A DNA stretch of 64,000 bases, taken from the NCBI GenBank assembly GCA_021731045.1, contig JAKFYE010000039.1, forward strand, positions 1 through 64,000, given 5' to 3'. This DNA comes from Bdellovibrionales bacterium (GTDB taxonomy: Bacteria; Bdellovibrionota; Bdellovibrionia; Bdellovibrionales; JAKFYE01). Every line of letters starts with the position of its first letter. Position 1 is the first letter of the stretch. The notes below the pieces were generated by a model, which saw only the letters and a list, made by a program, of their open reading frames with translations, was not told where the DNA came from and made no database searches. This document shows positions 2,745 through 8,163 of the stretch, one piece after another. Both the position numbers and the translations under genes were made by a program.

Positions 2745-2812
2745 GCCCCCCAGAACAAATCTCCATTAATTATTTCTTGGTCTTGATCTAATTTCAAGAT
2801 AGATTGCGCCTC

Positions 2813-3610
2813 ATGCAACCACAAAATCCTTTTAGCCAACAGTCGCCTATTCCTGGAGTTAAACACATCGTTGCTATTGCTTCAGGCAAAGGTGGCGTCG
2901 GTAAAAGCACCGTTAGCGCGAACCTTGCGGTGGCTCTCGCGAAAACAGGGTCCAAAGTAGGACTTTTGGATTGCGATATTTACGGGCCAAGTATCCCGCG
3001 ACTTTTTGGAACAATTAACCAAAAGCCTGCCATCAGTGAAGCCGGCCGAATTCAGCCTATCGACCGGTATAATGTACGATTGATGAGCATTGGGTATCTG
3101 GTAGATGAAAATTCGGCGGTCGTATGGCGCGGCCCTATGCTCTTTAAAGCCATCGATCAATTTATTAAAGACGTCGAATGGGGTGAACTAGATTATTTGC
3201 TTATAGATCTTCCACCAGGAACTGGCGACGTGCAGCTCACGATTGCACAGAAAGTTCCACTTTCGGGCGCCCTTACCGTTTGTACACCTCAGAATTTAGC
3301 GCTTATTGACGTTAAAAAAGCTCTCGATATGTTCATGCGTATTAATGTTCCTATTTTAGGTCTCATTGAAAATATGTCTTATTTTGCGAATCCCACTACG
3401 GGCGAAAAAATCCAAATGTTTCCCAAGGGAGAGCTTGAAAGCTTTTTAGATAGAACTAAAATTCCTAAATTAATAGAGCTGCCTTTTTATACAACTCTGG
3501 CCAAAGCTTCTGAAGTCGGAATTCCTGTCTGCGAAGGCACGCCCGACTCTGATGAAGCCAAACTTTTCCAACAGCTTGCGGGTATTTTAAAAGCTAAACT
3601 TGAAAAGTAA
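2813..3610 (+). CDS. mrp: Mrp/ApbC family ATPase (iron-sulfur cluster carrier), CxxC absent
   Basis: 265 residues from the ATG at 2813 (a TTG at 2804 would add three). P-loop of the deviant Walker type SGKGGVGKST (residues 24-33), the family signature DCDIYGPSIPR (53-63) and LPPGTGD (133-139) are all present. Mrp proteins carry or insert Fe-S clusters, and the cluster is normally bound by a C-terminal CxxC just after ENMSYF. Here that segment reads ANPTTGEKI (192-200), with no Cys, so cluster bridging by the usual ligands is not possible. It is followed by the ncRNA region. Family call is firm; function in Fe-S transfer is less sure. Confidence 0.93.
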   Translation: MQPQNPFSQQSPIPGVKHIVAIASGKGGVGKSTVSANLAVALAKTGSKVGLLDCDIYGPSIPRLFGTINQKPAISEAGRIQPIDRYNVRLMSIGYLVDENSAVVWRGPMLFKAIDQFIKDVEWGELDYLLIDLPPGTGDVQLTIAQKVPLSGALTVCTPQNLALIDVKKALDMFMRINVPILGLIENMSYFANPTTGEKIQMFPKGELESFLDRTKIPKLIELPFYTTLAKASEVGIPVCEGTPDSDEAKLFQQLAGILKAKLEK

Positions 3611-3745: not shown

Positions 3746-3773
3746 TTGAAAACTTGACGCTTTGCGATATTCT
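3746..3773 (+). promoter_or_regulatory. Sigma-70 type promoter of the GEMM RNA
   Basis: TTGAAA (3746-3751), a 16-base spacer, then TATTCT (3768-3773). Predicted transcription start is about 3779-3781. The next genes on this strand are far away, so it serves the RNA at 3780-4161. Confidence 0.55.
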
Positions 3774-3965
3774 AGGCGACATGAAACACATCATCCTTAT
3801 CGGTTACATTATCAAGGGCAAAAGAATTCCACGTGAGCTTAACCTGGATAGTCCACCAAAGTGACGACGCTGTAGGCTTATTTAAACAAAATCTGTTTAT
3901 AAGTTTGGTTTGTTCGCAACTCGGAGGTGGATCGAAATCTAGCAACCTTGCATATAACTCCTCTT

Positions 3966-4055
3966 CTGCACAGGTAAACCGATCGGAAACGACGGGGCAC
4001 AAAGCTACAGGGGCTTCGGTCAAAAAAGTAGACCATGCCAGCCAGTCTGCCAGGG
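3966..4055 (+). promoter_or_regulatory. GEMM-I riboswitch aptamer
   Basis: The conserved order is AGGTAAACC, GNRA-loop hairpin (CCG-A-TCG GAAA CGACGG), ACAAAGC, purine-rich GGG, a hairpin with GGTC/GACC, then ATGCCAGCC. This is the layout of c-di-GMP-I riboswitches. Some deltaproteobacterial members prefer 3',3'-cGAMP; ligand choice cannot be settled by eye. Confidence 0.75.
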
Positions 4056-4131
4056 GAACTTGGGATACAGCACTGAGGGGACAGTCATAGCGCTACAGGG
4101 ATTTATGCGCAGGACAAAAAGATTTCCTTTT

Positions 4132-4161
4132 ACCCGCTCGCAAAGCGGGTTTTTCTTTTTT
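4132..4161 (+). terminator. Intrinsic terminator of the GEMM RNA
   Basis: Stem ACCCGCT / AGCGGGT (4132-4138, 4144-4150) followed by a T-rich run. The T-run is only on the plus strand, so it belongs to the ncRNA and not to mltD, which ends at 4160 on the other strand. Confidence 0.85.
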
Positions 4162-5596
4162 AATTCGGAATTTGAATTCGAGATCCTACAAGAATGCGAG
4201 AACGGGCGCGCATATTATTCGCACCGGCAATTTCTCTCATTGAAACCCGATACTTTCGGGCAATTCCAGCAAGCGTATCGCCTCGTTTCACAACATGTAT
4301 TGTCGCACTGTCTTTTGATTTCTGAAACTCACTGACTTTAGATTTCTTCGATTTGCGCTCAACCTGATATTCAGCAACTCTACGTGAAACTGATCCTTTT
4401 TGCGGAACTAATATATTGTGCCCGACCAGTAAGTTCGCGCGTGGACTTAATTTATTGGTTTTAGCTAGCTCGGCGATCGTGACATTATAGCGATTCGCAA
4501 TCTCGGTTAGCGAATCTCCCTTACGAATTTTATAATGAGAATACACTGGCCCTTCTGCCGTTCGTCCCGCTGCTAATATCACACGCGTATCACGCACGCG
4601 CGCCTCCGCAATCATTCGACCCGCATCATCCGCACGTCCAACCGGTACGCGAAGAACAAAGTCGCCACCACGTGAAGACATCGCGTAATCAGTCTTGTAT
4701 CCCGGATTCAACGCTTTTAACTCAACATAATCTAAATTCATCTTGGTCGCGAGTCGACGAAGACTAATGGTCCCATCAATTTTAATTTCGTCATAAGCAA
4801 ACGGTGTCGCATAATTAATATTATCAAATCCATACTTTCCTGGATTTTTTGCAATCAAACTAGCCGCCAAAAATTTCGGCACGTAATTAATGGTTTCAAC
4901 CGGCATACGTCCCTTTCCGATTAACTCCCAAAAATCACGCGTATGATGTGTCATAATTAACCGTTTAATTTTATTTTCGCCGGCATTGTAACTCGCGATG
5001 GCCAAATACCAAGAACCAAACAAATTATAAAGCCCACTAAAATAATCAGCAGCCGCTTGCGTTGATAAAACTGGGTCACGTCGTTCATCGATCAGCGAAT
5101 TAATTTTTAAACCATAATCTCGCCCAGTCCCACGCATAAATTGCCAATACCCGACTGCACCAACACGGCTGAGCGCCGTTGGACTAAAACCTGACTCAAT
5201 CAAAGCAACGTAAACAAGATCTTCGGGCATACCGCGCTCTTTTAAGATCTTTTTCATAATCGGCAAATAACGAGACGAACGGGCAAGATATCGCTCCATA
5301 TGTAGGCGTCCACGCCCTTGAAAGTAATCAATCCATTTTACTACGAGCGAGTTAATTTCAATCGGGATTTGCGCCAAATCCTCTGCATTTTGATAGTCAC
5401 GATTTGTTTTTGGTAACTGACTGATTTCGTCAATTTCTTCAACCTCAGCATCGCCCGTGGCCATTACTAACGCTTTAGAATCGGGCGCTTTGCTATTCGC
5501 CTCTTGTGTCTTCTTTTTTGCAGAAGAACATGAAATCAACATCAACGAAGAAAACACAAGTAATGACAATCGGAGTATTCGTAGATCTTCGCGCAA
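4160..5596 (-). CDS. mltD: MltD-like membrane-bound lytic murein transglycosylase with two LysM domains
   Basis: 478 residues from a TTG at 5596, chosen because GGGAGGA sits 5-6 bases upstream; a GTG at 5608 is possible. A lipobox (LISC, Cys23) predicts a lipoprotein. The SLT domain (about 115-235) holds the catalytic Glu in ALIESGFSP (Glu134), then GAVGYWQFM and ASYNAGENKI. Two LysM peptidoglycan-binding repeats lie at the C-terminus (about 355-400 and 432-478; KGDSLTEIA and RGDTLAGIA). It cleaves glycan strands to 1,6-anhydro products. Preceded 53 bases upstream by the slt-like gene, so probably co-transcribed. Confidence 0.95.
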   Translation of the reverse strand: MREDLRILRLSLLVFSSLMLISCSSAKKKTQEANSKAPDSKALVMATGDAEVEEIDEISQLPKTNRDYQNAEDLAQIPIEINSLVVKWIDYFQGRGRLHMERYLARSSRYLPIMKKILKERGMPEDLVYVALIESGFSPTALSRVGAVGYWQFMRGTGRDYGLKINSLIDERRDPVLSTQAAADYFSGLYNLFGSWYLAIASYNAGENKIKRLIMTHHTRDFWELIGKGRMPVETINYVPKFLAASLIAKNPGKYGFDNINYATPFAYDEIKIDGTISLRRLATKMNLDYVELKALNPGYKTDYAMSSRGGDFVLRVPVGRADDAGRMIAEARVRDTRVILAAGRTAEGPVYSHYKIRKGDSLTEIANRYNVTIAELAKTNKLSPRANLLVGHNILVPQKGSVSRRVAEYQVERKSKKSKVSEFQKSKDSATIHVVKRGDTLAGIARKYRVSMREIAGANNMRARSRILVGSRIQIPN

Positions 5597-5649
5597 AATT
5601 CCTCCCACACTTTCAAGCTATATTTGTAACCTCAAGAATACGTGAATCG

Positions 5650-7947
5650 TTACTTTGTGTCCACAGATTCAGCCATCCAAATCGGGGAAGAAAGAAGGAC
5701 TCGACTATAGTTCTGATCATTTGTTTTGATCGATGATGCCGCTAAGCTACGATACAAAATCAAATTGCGTAAAATAGCTTTCACATAAAATCGAGTTTCG
5801 GACCACGGCAATTCTTCGATCCATATTTCACGCTCTGGGTCCGAGGTCGGGGCCAGTTCAATCTTGCGTGACTCGAGCCACTTTTGAATTCGTGTTGGCC
5901 CCGCATTATACGCAGCTAATGCCGCCGGAAGATTTCCACCAAAACTTTTTAAAACCTTGGCTAAATAGTACGTGCAAAAAATTAAATTCTTTTCGGGGTT
6001 AAACATATCGTCTGGCAAATTTATATTTTTATATTTTAAATCTTGTGCAACCTCTTGAACCGTTGGCGGAATCATTTGCATCAATCCCAAAGCGCCGCTT
6101 CGACTCTTGGCCGTATAGTTAAACGCACTTTCCTGACGGATCAAACTTCTCACCCAATTAGGGTCGAGGCTGTTTTTCTTTGCCTCGCGAGTGATCCATC
6201 CATCAAATTCCATCGGAAACGAATTTCTAAAAAAGGGGTTTTCTTGCAATCGCGCATCAGCATCCCAACCCTCCGCAAATAATTTGATGGCGCGGGGATA
6301 GCTAAATGCCGAAACCCAATACTGCGCCAAAAAGGCTCTCACGACAGGATCCTTAGGATGCGGAAACTCTTCCAATTCTTTTTGCGCCTCTACCCACCAG
6401 CCACCGCCAAGCAAAATTTGAATTCGCTCCCAAGATTTCCTCTCTTGTTCCGTCACCCAAAAATTTGCACTCAACGGGGTGTTCGGCTTCAAATTAGGTA
6501 GCTCTAAAGCTCCCCCATTTAACTCGGATTGCGCTCGCAATCCATAATAAGTAAAAGGAAATTCTGTCGCTAATGTTTTCGCTTCGATCTCGGCGCGTGC
6601 CGGGTCTATCTTCTGTAAGGATCTCCAAAGCCAATATCGTGTTTCAAGCTCAAGATCATCCGTTTGCGGAAGAACCAACAGCCGTTCAAAATCCGCGAGA
6701 CTCGCTGTATACTGCTTAGCCCGATATTCAAGTAATCCTAAATAAAACAAAGCCGATCGCGCCTCGCTCGTACCTGCATGCTTTAAAATTAATTCGTTAA
6801 ACCATTTTCGCGCATCGCGGTCTTCACCCAAAAAAGTGGCCGCACGCGCCGTCATTAAAATTAAAGCCGACGTGGGAGAGCTCACACCGATTTTTTTAAT
6901 CGCCTGCTCACTGAGCGCGAATGCATCTGCATATTGTGAAAGTTTAAAAAATTGATTTGCCCAATCTGAAAGTCGCCGTCCATCGGCTCGCGACATCTGT
7001 TTAACAATCCGAGATTTTAGTAAAATATAATTTGGATCAGCCTTGCTACTCACATTTGAATACGATTCAAAAATACGCTCGCTCGCCCATTGTGCGCGGG
7101 TGCCCCAAGGAAACTCCTCAATTAAATTCATTCCATCTTCAACTGCCGAAACGATATCTCCAGAGCGTAGAGCAATTTTCATTCTCTCATAAAGTTCGAG
7201 TTCACGCTCGCTAGCTTCTAATTTTTCATCTTTAGCCGCTTTGGACTCTGGTACCTTTGGGGAACTTGCCAGCTCTCCCGTTTTAAGCACCGACTCTATC
7301 GAATTCAACTTAGCTTTTAATTTTTCGTCGTCTCGAAACTCCAAGCTTCTTTCAATAAATCGCTTAGCTGCCGAAAGTTTTTGGCGCAAAAAAGCAAGCT
7401 CACCTGCTTGTCTAAAAGCATCCGCCTTTTGATTCGTTGTCATCCATTCTTGATAATTTAATAGGTCTTCAGCAAACTTCCATGCTTCCTGTGGCACCAG
7501 GTGACTGTGCCAGCTTAGGTACATAAACTTTGCATCAATCAAAGCCTTACGTAAAAAATCAGAGTACGGACCAAACAAAAGCCAATCTTTTTCTTTTTCT
7601 ATTTTTTTTATTGCGGTTAACAATCGACTGGCGTCTTCGTGTTTACCCTTTAATTTCGTTAGACAATCTAATTCGTTGATGCTGAGCCATGGGCCAATTT
7701 GCGCAATTTTTTTTTCCGCTTGCGCCGCCAAATCCGCACATTTCAGAAACTCTCCGCTCGATTGGGCGATGCGAATTTTCTCTAAAAGGCTGATCTCTTT
7801 TTTAGGTGTTCGCCCCTTATCATTAAATATTGCACGAGAGATCGGCGGCTTTTTTTCTTTATTAAATTTTATTTCACTGAGATCGGCATAAGTGAGGAGA
7901 GGACATATCAAAACCAATAGACAACTTAGCCGTGTTGCAGCAGACAT
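5650..7947 (-). CDS. slt: Slt70-like soluble lytic murein transglycosylase
   Basis: 765 residues from ATG 7947, chosen because it begins the signal peptide (MSAATRLSCLLVLICPLLTYA) and has AAGAAAGG about 8 bases upstream; a longer frame begins at 8013. A long alpha-superhelical region with TPR-like helices (about 60-570) precedes the SLT domain, with catalytic Glu606 in RQESAFN, then SGALGLMQM and AAYNAGPTRI. This is the domain order and roughly the length of Slt70-type enzymes (about 620-750). It acts in the periplasm on peptidoglycan, probably together with the adjacent MltD-like enzyme. Confidence 0.94.
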   Translation of the reverse strand: MSAATRLSCLLVLICPLLTYADLSEIKFNKEKKPPISRAIFNDKGRTPKKEISLLEKIRIAQSSGEFLKCADLAAQAEKKIAQIGPWLSINELDCLTKLKGKHEDASRLLTAIKKIEKEKDWLLFGPYSDFLRKALIDAKFMYLSWHSHLVPQEAWKFAEDLLNYQEWMTTNQKADAFRQAGELAFLRQKLSAAKRFIERSLEFRDDEKLKAKLNSIESVLKTGELASSPKVPESKAAKDEKLEASERELELYERMKIALRSGDIVSAVEDGMNLIEEFPWGTRAQWASERIFESYSNVSSKADPNYILLKSRIVKQMSRADGRRLSDWANQFFKLSQYADAFALSEQAIKKIGVSSPTSALILMTARAATFLGEDRDARKWFNELILKHAGTSEARSALFYLGLLEYRAKQYTASLADFERLLVLPQTDDLELETRYWLWRSLQKIDPARAEIEAKTLATEFPFTYYGLRAQSELNGGALELPNLKPNTPLSANFWVTEQERKSWERIQILLGGGWWVEAQKELEEFPHPKDPVVRAFLAQYWVSAFSYPRAIKLFAEGWDADARLQENPFFRNSFPMEFDGWITREAKKNSLDPNWVRSLIRQESAFNYTAKSRSGALGLMQMIPPTVQEVAQDLKYKNINLPDDMFNPEKNLIFCTYYLAKVLKSFGGNLPAALAAYNAGPTRIQKWLESRKIELAPTSDPEREIWIEELPWSETRFYVKAILRNLILYRSLAASSIKTNDQNYSRVLLSSPIWMAESVDTK

Positions 7948-8163
7948 GCGCGCGTACCTTTCTTGCGGATTTACTTTTCTTTGATTATCCGCACCACGCA
8001 TAACATTATTCAACTTATTTTGATTTTCTTCATAATTAACTTCGAGAAGAACGCCTGAAAAACATTTTAAAGCGTGTACGAAAAAAAAGGTCTAGGCTAT
8101 CTATGGTAAATCAAACTTTGAAAGCAAGCTCCGCCATCAGAGCGAACAAGTTTAAAACAAAAA

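What the first reader, a model, noticed from the sequence alone, without database searches (positions are those of the whole stretch)
3746..4161. Orphan GEMM aptamer RNA with promoter and terminator, merRNA-like
Seen: a sigma-70 type promoter, a GEMM-I core (AGGTAAACC, ACAAAGC, ATGCCAGCC blocks), and a strong plus-strand terminator, with no downstream gene. Known: Bdellovibrio merRNA is a c-di-GMP-riboswitch RNA without a controlled gene, massively expressed in attack phase. Inferred: this is a relative, perhaps a c-di-GMP sponge or store.
Basis: partly seen in the sequence, partly recalled or inferred. Interest (0 to 1): 0.9.

Follow-up and report, generated by a model that had tools for sequence, protein, structure and literature searches.

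The report
Bdellovibrio-type c-di-GMP RNA with micro-gene
A bacterium related to the predator Bdellovibrio carries the counterpart of a known, very abundant stand-alone RNA that should bind the signal molecule c-di-GMP, and comparison across relatives shows that this RNA, so far called non-coding, usually also contains a tiny conserved gene.

Summary
Window 3963-4054 scores 46.5 bits against Rfam c-di-GMP-I (cut-off 35), the only copy found in its genome, between a promoter shared with relatives and a terminator; the next large gene is convergent. It is an ortholog of Bdellovibrio merRNA: the single hit in the HD100-sized genome lies inside the published merRNA coordinates, with mrp upstream in both. 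90 of 143 class genomes have a hit, each exactly one, wider than the published 'Bdellovibrio lineage'.

The new point: merRNA is usually not purely non-coding. In 60 of 88 order genomes the leader has a Shine-Dalgarno-led micro-ORF of 9-19 codons, mostly ending Pro-Lys/Glu-stop; shuffled leaders give 0.8. Differences between neighbour pairs fall 31/38/89 on codon positions 1/2/3, against 31/30/32 and 32/27/26 in flanking controls. The window keeps its end (..LNLDSPPK-stop), but has AUU where relatives have a standard start, or a nearly leaderless AUG. A start-less AAGGAGG is also conserved (52 of 89; 1.8 expected; the window has GGAGG). Ligand binding, expression and function were not testable.

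The parts
3746..3773 (+). promoter: -35 TTGAAA (3746-3751), -10 TATTCT (3768-3773); start of transcription inferred at about 3780
   Evidence: 9 of 12 matches, weak alone; motif shared with related leaders
3814..3818 (+). Shine-Dalgarno-like AAGGG of micro-ORF1
   Evidence: sequence; position compares with the AAGGGG of relatives such as G061 (by eye)
3826..3864 (+). micro-ORF1: by homology starts at ATT 3826 (12 codons, .PRELNLDSPPK-stop, TGA 3862-3864); alternatively an in-frame, nearly leaderless ATG at 3781 (27 codons)
   Evidence: added by hand, does not meet the start-codon rule; motif D[SP]PP[KE]-stop in 0 of 20000 shuffles of this leader
3873..3907 (+). A+U-rich hairpin between micro-ORF1 and aptamer
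   Evidence: predicted fold; not tested for conservation
3923..3927 (+). GGAGG, a Shine-Dalgarno-like element without a start codon at working distance
   Evidence: GGAGG in -90..-15 of the aptamer in 77 of 89 loci against 10.8 expected, 67 of the 77 without a start codon downstream
3962..3968 (+). 5' strand of outer helix P1 (TCTTCTG), pairs with 4051-4057 (two G-U pairs)
3963..4054 (+). c-di-GMP-I (GEMM-I) aptamer; compensatory pair U3975-A3999 where 84 of 90 loci have C-G
4051..4057 (+). 3' strand of outer helix P1 (CAGGGGA)
4132..4160 (+). intrinsic terminator
2804..3610 (+). upstream neighbour: mrp/apbC-type P-loop NTPase (context, not part of the RNA)
   Evidence: PF10609, 312.9 bits; conserved neighbour
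4160..5608 (-). convergent neighbour: MltD-like transglycosylase with LysM (context)
   Evidence: PF01464, PF01476; conserved neighbour in many relatives

Best explanation
This is the merRNA ortholog of another family of Bdellovibrionales: an independently transcribed and terminated RNA of about 380 nt with one c-di-GMP-I aptamer and no cis-controlled protein gene. Shown at sequence level: aptamer, single copy, shared neighbourhood, promoter and terminator, P1 helix, a coding micro-ORF in the leader of most relatives, and a start-less Shine-Dalgarno element. Inferred: it binds c-di-GMP, and because the RNA is known to be massively abundant in HD100 attack-phase cells, it holds a sizeable share of the cell's c-di-GMP. 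Also inferred: ribosomes load on the leader micro-ORF (and perhaps on the start-less Shine-Dalgarno element) and either stabilise the RNA or tie c-di-GMP binding and release to translational activity. It would then act as a small dual-function RNA and not as a bare aptamer.
For: RF01051 46.5 bits, only copy found. In genome G030 (contig of 3,782,950 bases) the single hit at 1073868-1073951(-) lies inside the published merRNA, 1,073,741-1,074,185(-) (PMC3627812). One hit per genome in 90 of 143 class genomes. mrp found within the fetched flanks (up to 5 kb) in 47 and mltD in 44 of 61 loci, the window included in both counts, and both in the 2 loci of another order. Compensatory U-A for C-G in the core in 3 of 90 loci, the window among them. 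Strict terminator in 67 of 86, 4.8 expected. ORF1. AAGGAGG in 52 of 89, 47 of these without a start codon downstream, 1.8 expected. Own genome has 6 GGDEF and 11 PilZ matches.
Against: No RNA-seq or binding data for this organism. The window scores lowest but one of the 88 order hits. Its ORF1 lacks an ATG/GTG/TTG with a Shine-Dalgarno sequence, so translation here is uncertain. ORF1 is absent by the rule used from 27 of 88 genomes, including all 5 of family f5, so the RNA persists without it. 5 of the 60 rule hits, HD100's among them, rest on two special endings that I added to the rule. The proposed pairing of AAGGAGG with the strand just 5' of the aptamer is not above chance genome by genome (median p 0.22 over 87). 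P1 covariation is modest (mean helix score 14.79 for own strands, 14.29 for swapped strands, highest of 20 swaps 14.65). The full-length minimum-energy fold does not stand out (z -1.0). The RNase J C-terminal domain was not found in this 83.5%-complete genome, while RNase E/G was, which weakens the comparison with Bacillus RNA stabilisers.
Confidence: 0.72

Rival explanations
1. Purely non-coding c-di-GMP reservoir (the published merRNA idea): only the aptamer's mass action matters, and the micro-ORF plays no part in its function.
For: Published abundance and aptamer (PMC3627812); ORF1 missing in 27 of 88 genomes by the rule used while the aptamer stays; the window's ORF1 has no standard start codon with a Shine-Dalgarno sequence.
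Against: Differences in ORF1 fall on third codon positions (31/38/89, p 5e-9, 22 pairs; differences treated as independent) and not so in the flanks; 60 of 89 leaders have it against 0.8 in shuffles; stops TGA, TAG and TAA occur 43, 14 and 4 times at the end of the frame.
Confidence: 0.3
2. Ordinary cis-acting riboswitch of a downstream gene.
For: The aptamer class is mostly cis-acting (recalled); in 26 of 82 loci the first downstream frame of at least 100 aa is on the same strand, 5-458 nt after the aptamer, and these products were not compared. In Bdellovibrionaceae a second short frame (..DWFHSP-stop) follows the aptamer with its frame kept (47 of 49 distances divisible by 3).
Against: Next large gene convergent in the window and in 56 of 82 loci; strict terminator in 67 of 86 loci. 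The second short frame was not found in the window and shows no synonymous bias (16/24/19).
Confidence: 0.07
3. Degenerate, non-functional remnant of merRNA in this lineage.
For: Low score relative to relatives; AUU at the ORF1 start position.
Against: Compensatory core pair U3975-A3999; P1 retained with G-U pairs; promoter and terminator present.
Confidence: 0.08

Closest known systems
merRNA of Bdellovibrio bacteriovorus HD100 (PMC3627812; passages read)
   Same: Single orphan c-di-GMP-I aptamer, mrp upstream, own promoter and terminator, similar lengths before and after the aptamer; the HD100-sized genome also has the micro-ORF (MRTHEHHDDELK)
   Different: About 380 (inferred) against 445 nt; no second short frame downstream; ORF1 end ..LDSPPK as in other families, not ..HHDDELK; expression unknown
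c-di-GMP-I (GEMM-I) riboswitches, RF01051
   Same: Aptamer core and, by residue numbering recalled for the Vc2 structure, G20, A47 and C92 at 3973, 4001 and 4050; a G at the G20 position favours c-di-GMP over cGAMP (recalled)
   Different: No expression platform with a controlled gene found
STAB-SD 5' stabilisers of Bacillus (cryIIIA; passages of review PMC3997798)
   Same: Strong Shine-Dalgarno sequence without a start codon, in an RNA that accumulates strongly (in HD100)
   Different: Internal and not at the 5' end; RNase J C-terminal domain not found here; a resemblance, not a membership

Membership tests
merRNA | c-di-GMP-I aptamer, single copy in the genome | tested here: met
   (assembly 83.5% complete)
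merRNA | same genomic neighbourhood as HD100 merRNA | tested here: met
   Mrp and the 119-aa frame upstream in the same order and orientation in window and G030; mltD is next to it in the window but not within 5 kb in G030
merRNA | own promoter and terminator, no downstream gene | tested here: met
   (sequence level only)
merRNA | massive attack-phase expression | not testable with these tools
   no RNA-seq for this organism
merRNA | binds c-di-GMP | not testable with these tools
   core residues kept (residue numbering recalled); no binding assay seen in the HD100 paper passages read
c-di-GMP-I riboswitch (RF01051) | score above the curated cut-off | tested here: met
   46.5 against 35 bits
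c-di-GMP-I riboswitch (RF01051) | controls a gene in cis | tested here: not met
   no + strand frame of 100 aa or more before the convergent gene, and a terminator between; sequence level only

The most novel reading that the evidence does not exclude
merRNA is a ribosome-coupled c-di-GMP device: an abundant dual-function RNA, widespread in the class, in which translation (or Pro-Pro-Lys-stop slowing) of a conserved 9-19 aa micro-ORF, with extra start-less Shine-Dalgarno sites, sets the RNA's stability or its hold on c-di-GMP. Resumed translation after prey entry could then trigger release of the signal; or the micropeptide itself is an abundant attack-phase product.
Probability: 0.3. Interest if true: 0.88.

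Novelty: new variant of a known kind. Interest (0 to 1): 0.62.

Why it matters
In attack-phase HD100, merRNA is reported to draw about as many reads as all protein-coding genes together and to be expressed twice as highly as tmRNA (PMC3627812, passages). I saw no experimental test of its function in the held papers that name it (one search lists 3; passages of 2 read). If it carries a translated, selected micro-ORF, the sponge idea is incomplete. A start-codon mutant and an aptamer mutant in HD100 could then separate the coding role from the ligand role. The class-wide spread gives the alignment needed to design such mutants.

Tried and rejected
Pairing of AAGGAGG with the CUUCCUU strand 5' of the aptamer looked conserved by eye but was not above shuffles per genome (fraction with p<=0.05 is 0.057 of 87). 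A hairpin TTTGCC..GGCAAA that would mask the aptamer was chosen by RNAalifold, but TTTG is as well explained by its P1 partner CAAAGG, so I do not claim it. The full-length fold of the window RNA is not unusually stable (z -1.0). The second micro-ORF of Bdellovibrionaceae keeps its frame, but its substitutions are not coding-like: left inconclusive. FliA promoter: HD100 merRNA is not marked as FliA-dependent in the paper's Table 2, and the shared motif is sigma-70-like. A covariance model R1 was built but not used. A named-relative search with MltD gave only one distant hit (34%, Desulfuromonadales). Low-scoring Rfam matches in the tail (GadY, Trp_leader, anti-hemB) are far below their cut-offs. 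Papers: 3 held papers contain both Bdellovibrio and merRNA (one of them, PMC7468853, was seen as a listing only). The listings and the passages showed no report of an ORF in merRNA. This covers an open-access subset only.

The rule used to find ORF1 was written after looking at these sequences and holds two special endings (5 of its 60 hits). Its controls are the shuffles (0.8 of 89), the reverse strand (1 of 89, n) and the 260 nt beyond the terminator (0 of 86 on each strand). Three further ORF1-like frames (G087 and G099, listed; G140, leader printed) were seen by eye and are not in the counts; the window's own ORF1 was added by hand and left out.

Full report
What is there. The c-di-GMP-I aptamer at 3963-4054 passes Rfam's curated cut-off (46.5 against 35 bits) and is the only one found in the 2.58 Mb genome assembly (83.5% complete). 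In front of it is a promoter-like pair at 3746-3773, weak on its own. A motif search across 61 leaders, window included, gives TAT.CT as the common -10, with the HD100-sized genome scoring highest (24.2) and the window 11.9; one of the search's 33 starting points was the window's promoter, and its weakest fits look misplaced. Behind the aptamer is a terminator at 4132-4160. The loose pattern is no more frequent than in shuffles (4 against 3.9), but a strict form follows the aptamer in 67 of 86 loci against 4.8 in shuffles, the window included. The gene beyond is convergent: an MltD-like transglycosylase with LysM domains ending at 4160.

Identity. In 98 same-order genomes 61 had a hit, in 140 order genomes 88, in 143 class genomes 90; the window's genome is in each count, and every genome with a hit had exactly one. 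Genome G030 has a contig of 3,782,950 bases, which I recall as the size of B. bacteriovorus HD100. Its hit at 1073868-1073951 on the minus strand lies within the published merRNA at 1,073,741-1,074,185 minus (PMC3627812, passages read). Of 61 loci searched with the window's neighbours (up to 5 kb each side, some cut by contig ends), 47 had the Mrp-type NTPase, 44 the MltD-like enzyme and 42 the 119-aa frame; these counts include the window itself. G030 has Mrp and the 119-aa frame at similar distances, but no MltD within 5 kb. In G004 and G095 the RNA is inverted relative to mrp, and in G022 relative to mltD. In two genomes of another order mrp and mltD are both nearby. The 2013 paper found no conservation outside the Bdellovibrio lineage; these data extend merRNA to several families and a second order. 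By family code the 90 hits are f8 59, f3 15, f10 8, f5 5, f11 2 and the window's own f1 1. The other 53 of 143 genomes had no hit under the stricter filters used; these were not examined further.

The aptamer in the window is divergent but looks maintained. Where 84 of 90 loci have C and G at one core pair, the window and two others have U and A. The outer helix P1, which the Rfam model does not include, is CCUUUG/CAAAGG or a close variant in most loci, UCUUCUG/CAGGGGA in the window, and UCUCUA/UAGAGA in two genomes; a few loci pair best in another register or only weakly (G122, G124). Pairing a genome's own strands scores slightly better than swapped strands (14.79, against a mean of 14.29 and a highest value of 14.65 in 20 swaps), so the covariation is modest.

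A micro-ORF in the leader. Reading 30 of the loci side by side showed a Shine-Dalgarno sequence, a start codon and a short frame ending in ..LDPPPK-stop..DKSPK-stop or similar. A rule (Shine-Dalgarno of at least 4 bases, ATG/GTG/TTG, 7-24 codons, end pattern) found it in 60 of 88 genomes, lengths 9-19 codons (the window was added by hand, making the 61 printed there). The same rule gives 0.8 of 89 in shuffled leaders, 1 of 89 on the reverse strand, and 0 of 86 on either strand of the 260 nt beyond the terminator (n of the reverse strand). The rule was tuned on the data, and 5 of the 60, HD100's among them, pass only by two special endings, so the independent test matters. Between 22 nearest-neighbour pairs of ORF1 sequences (window left out) the differences at codon positions 1, 2 and 3 are 31, 38 and 89 (p 5e-9, differences treated as independent), with 65 synonymous and 53 non-synonymous codon changes. 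The stretch after ORF1 gives 31/30/32 (13 pairs) and the stretch before gives 32/27/26 (9 pairs). The last codon but one is Pro in 56 of 61 and uses CCG, CCA, CCC and CCT; the stops are TGA 43, TAG 14, TAA 4. ORF1 is therefore a coding sequence in most of the hit-bearing genomes. It is missing by this rule in 27 of 88, including all 5 of f5, 4 of 15 of f3, 1 of 8 of f10 and 17 of 59 of f8; some of the missing (G087 and G099) have a variant end.

ORF1 in the window. The frame ..PRELNLDSPPK-stop (stop at 3862-3864) aligns by eye without gaps to MPKDLRLDPPPE-stop of G061 and resembles MYKLPKDWRLDSPPK-stop of G136. Its end motif appears in 0 of 20000 shuffles of this leader. At the place of the relatives' ATG stands ATT (3826), 7 nt after AAGGG; AUU is a rare start codon (recalled for infC). 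The same frame is open up to an ATG at 3781, about one base from the expected transcription start, so a leaderless 27-codon version is also possible. Sequence alone does not decide, and an assembly error or a decayed ORF cannot be excluded.

Other conserved elements. AAGGAGG lies 15-90 nt before the aptamer in 52 of 89 loci (1.8 expected), and in 47 of the 52 no start codon follows at working distance; the window has GGAGG at 3923-3927. Purine-rich GGAAGG/GGAGG/GAGGA follows the aptamer in 65 of 90 loci (19.2 expected). I tested whether AAGGAGG pairs with the strand 5' of the aptamer and could not show it. Start-less Shine-Dalgarno sequences stabilise some Bacillus RNAs (review PMC3997798, passages), but the RNase J C-terminal domain was not found here and RNase E/G was, so that analogy is only a lead. 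In Bdellovibrionaceae (by my reading of family f8, which holds G030) a second short frame follows the aptamer with its frame kept over nine lengths (47 of 49), but without coding-like substitutions; its end is near-invariant in nucleotides. It was not found in the window.

How it most likely works. Shown by sequence: a separate transcription unit, an aptamer with signs of structural selection, and a selected micro-ORF in most relatives. Known from HD100: the RNA is covered by about as many reads as all protein genes together in attack phase and is about 5000-fold lower in growth phase (PMC3627812, Table 2); it is down in stator mutants with altered c-di-GMP (PMC11323537, one passage). Inferred: the RNA binds c-di-GMP in bulk, and ribosomes on its leader stabilise it or gate binding. 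The own genome has 6 GGDEF and 11 PilZ matches, so c-di-GMP signalling is present. Slowing at Pro-Pro-Lys-stop is a guess from known polyproline slowing (recalled).

Verdict. A merRNA ortholog in another family, with a real correction to what merRNA is thought to be. The interest lies more in the family than in this one locus.

Noticed in passing
L071 (HD100-sized genome), minus strand about 4921-4965; also most Bdellovibrionaceae loci: Second short frame after the aptamer (MEGTNTYKDWFHSP in L071) whose last bases GGTTTCATTCCCCTTA are nearly invariant just before the terminator; frame kept, but substitutions not coding-like.
   Followed up: partly
L041 (G004), L084 (G095), L090 (G022): merRNA is inverted relative to mrp (G004, G095) or to mltD (G022) compared with the other loci in which these genes were found.
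   Followed up: no
window 4160-8013 (-): Two lytic transglycosylase genes in tandem (MltD-like with LysM, then a Slt-like enzyme with an SLT domain) next to merRNA; both found near merRNA in many relatives (MltD 44, Slt 31 of 61 loci, window included).
   Followed up: partly
53 of 143 class genomes without an RF01051 hit: No hit in any of the 8 genomes of families f2, f4, f6, f7 and f9 listed; whether this follows lifestyle or filter loss is open.
   Followed up: no
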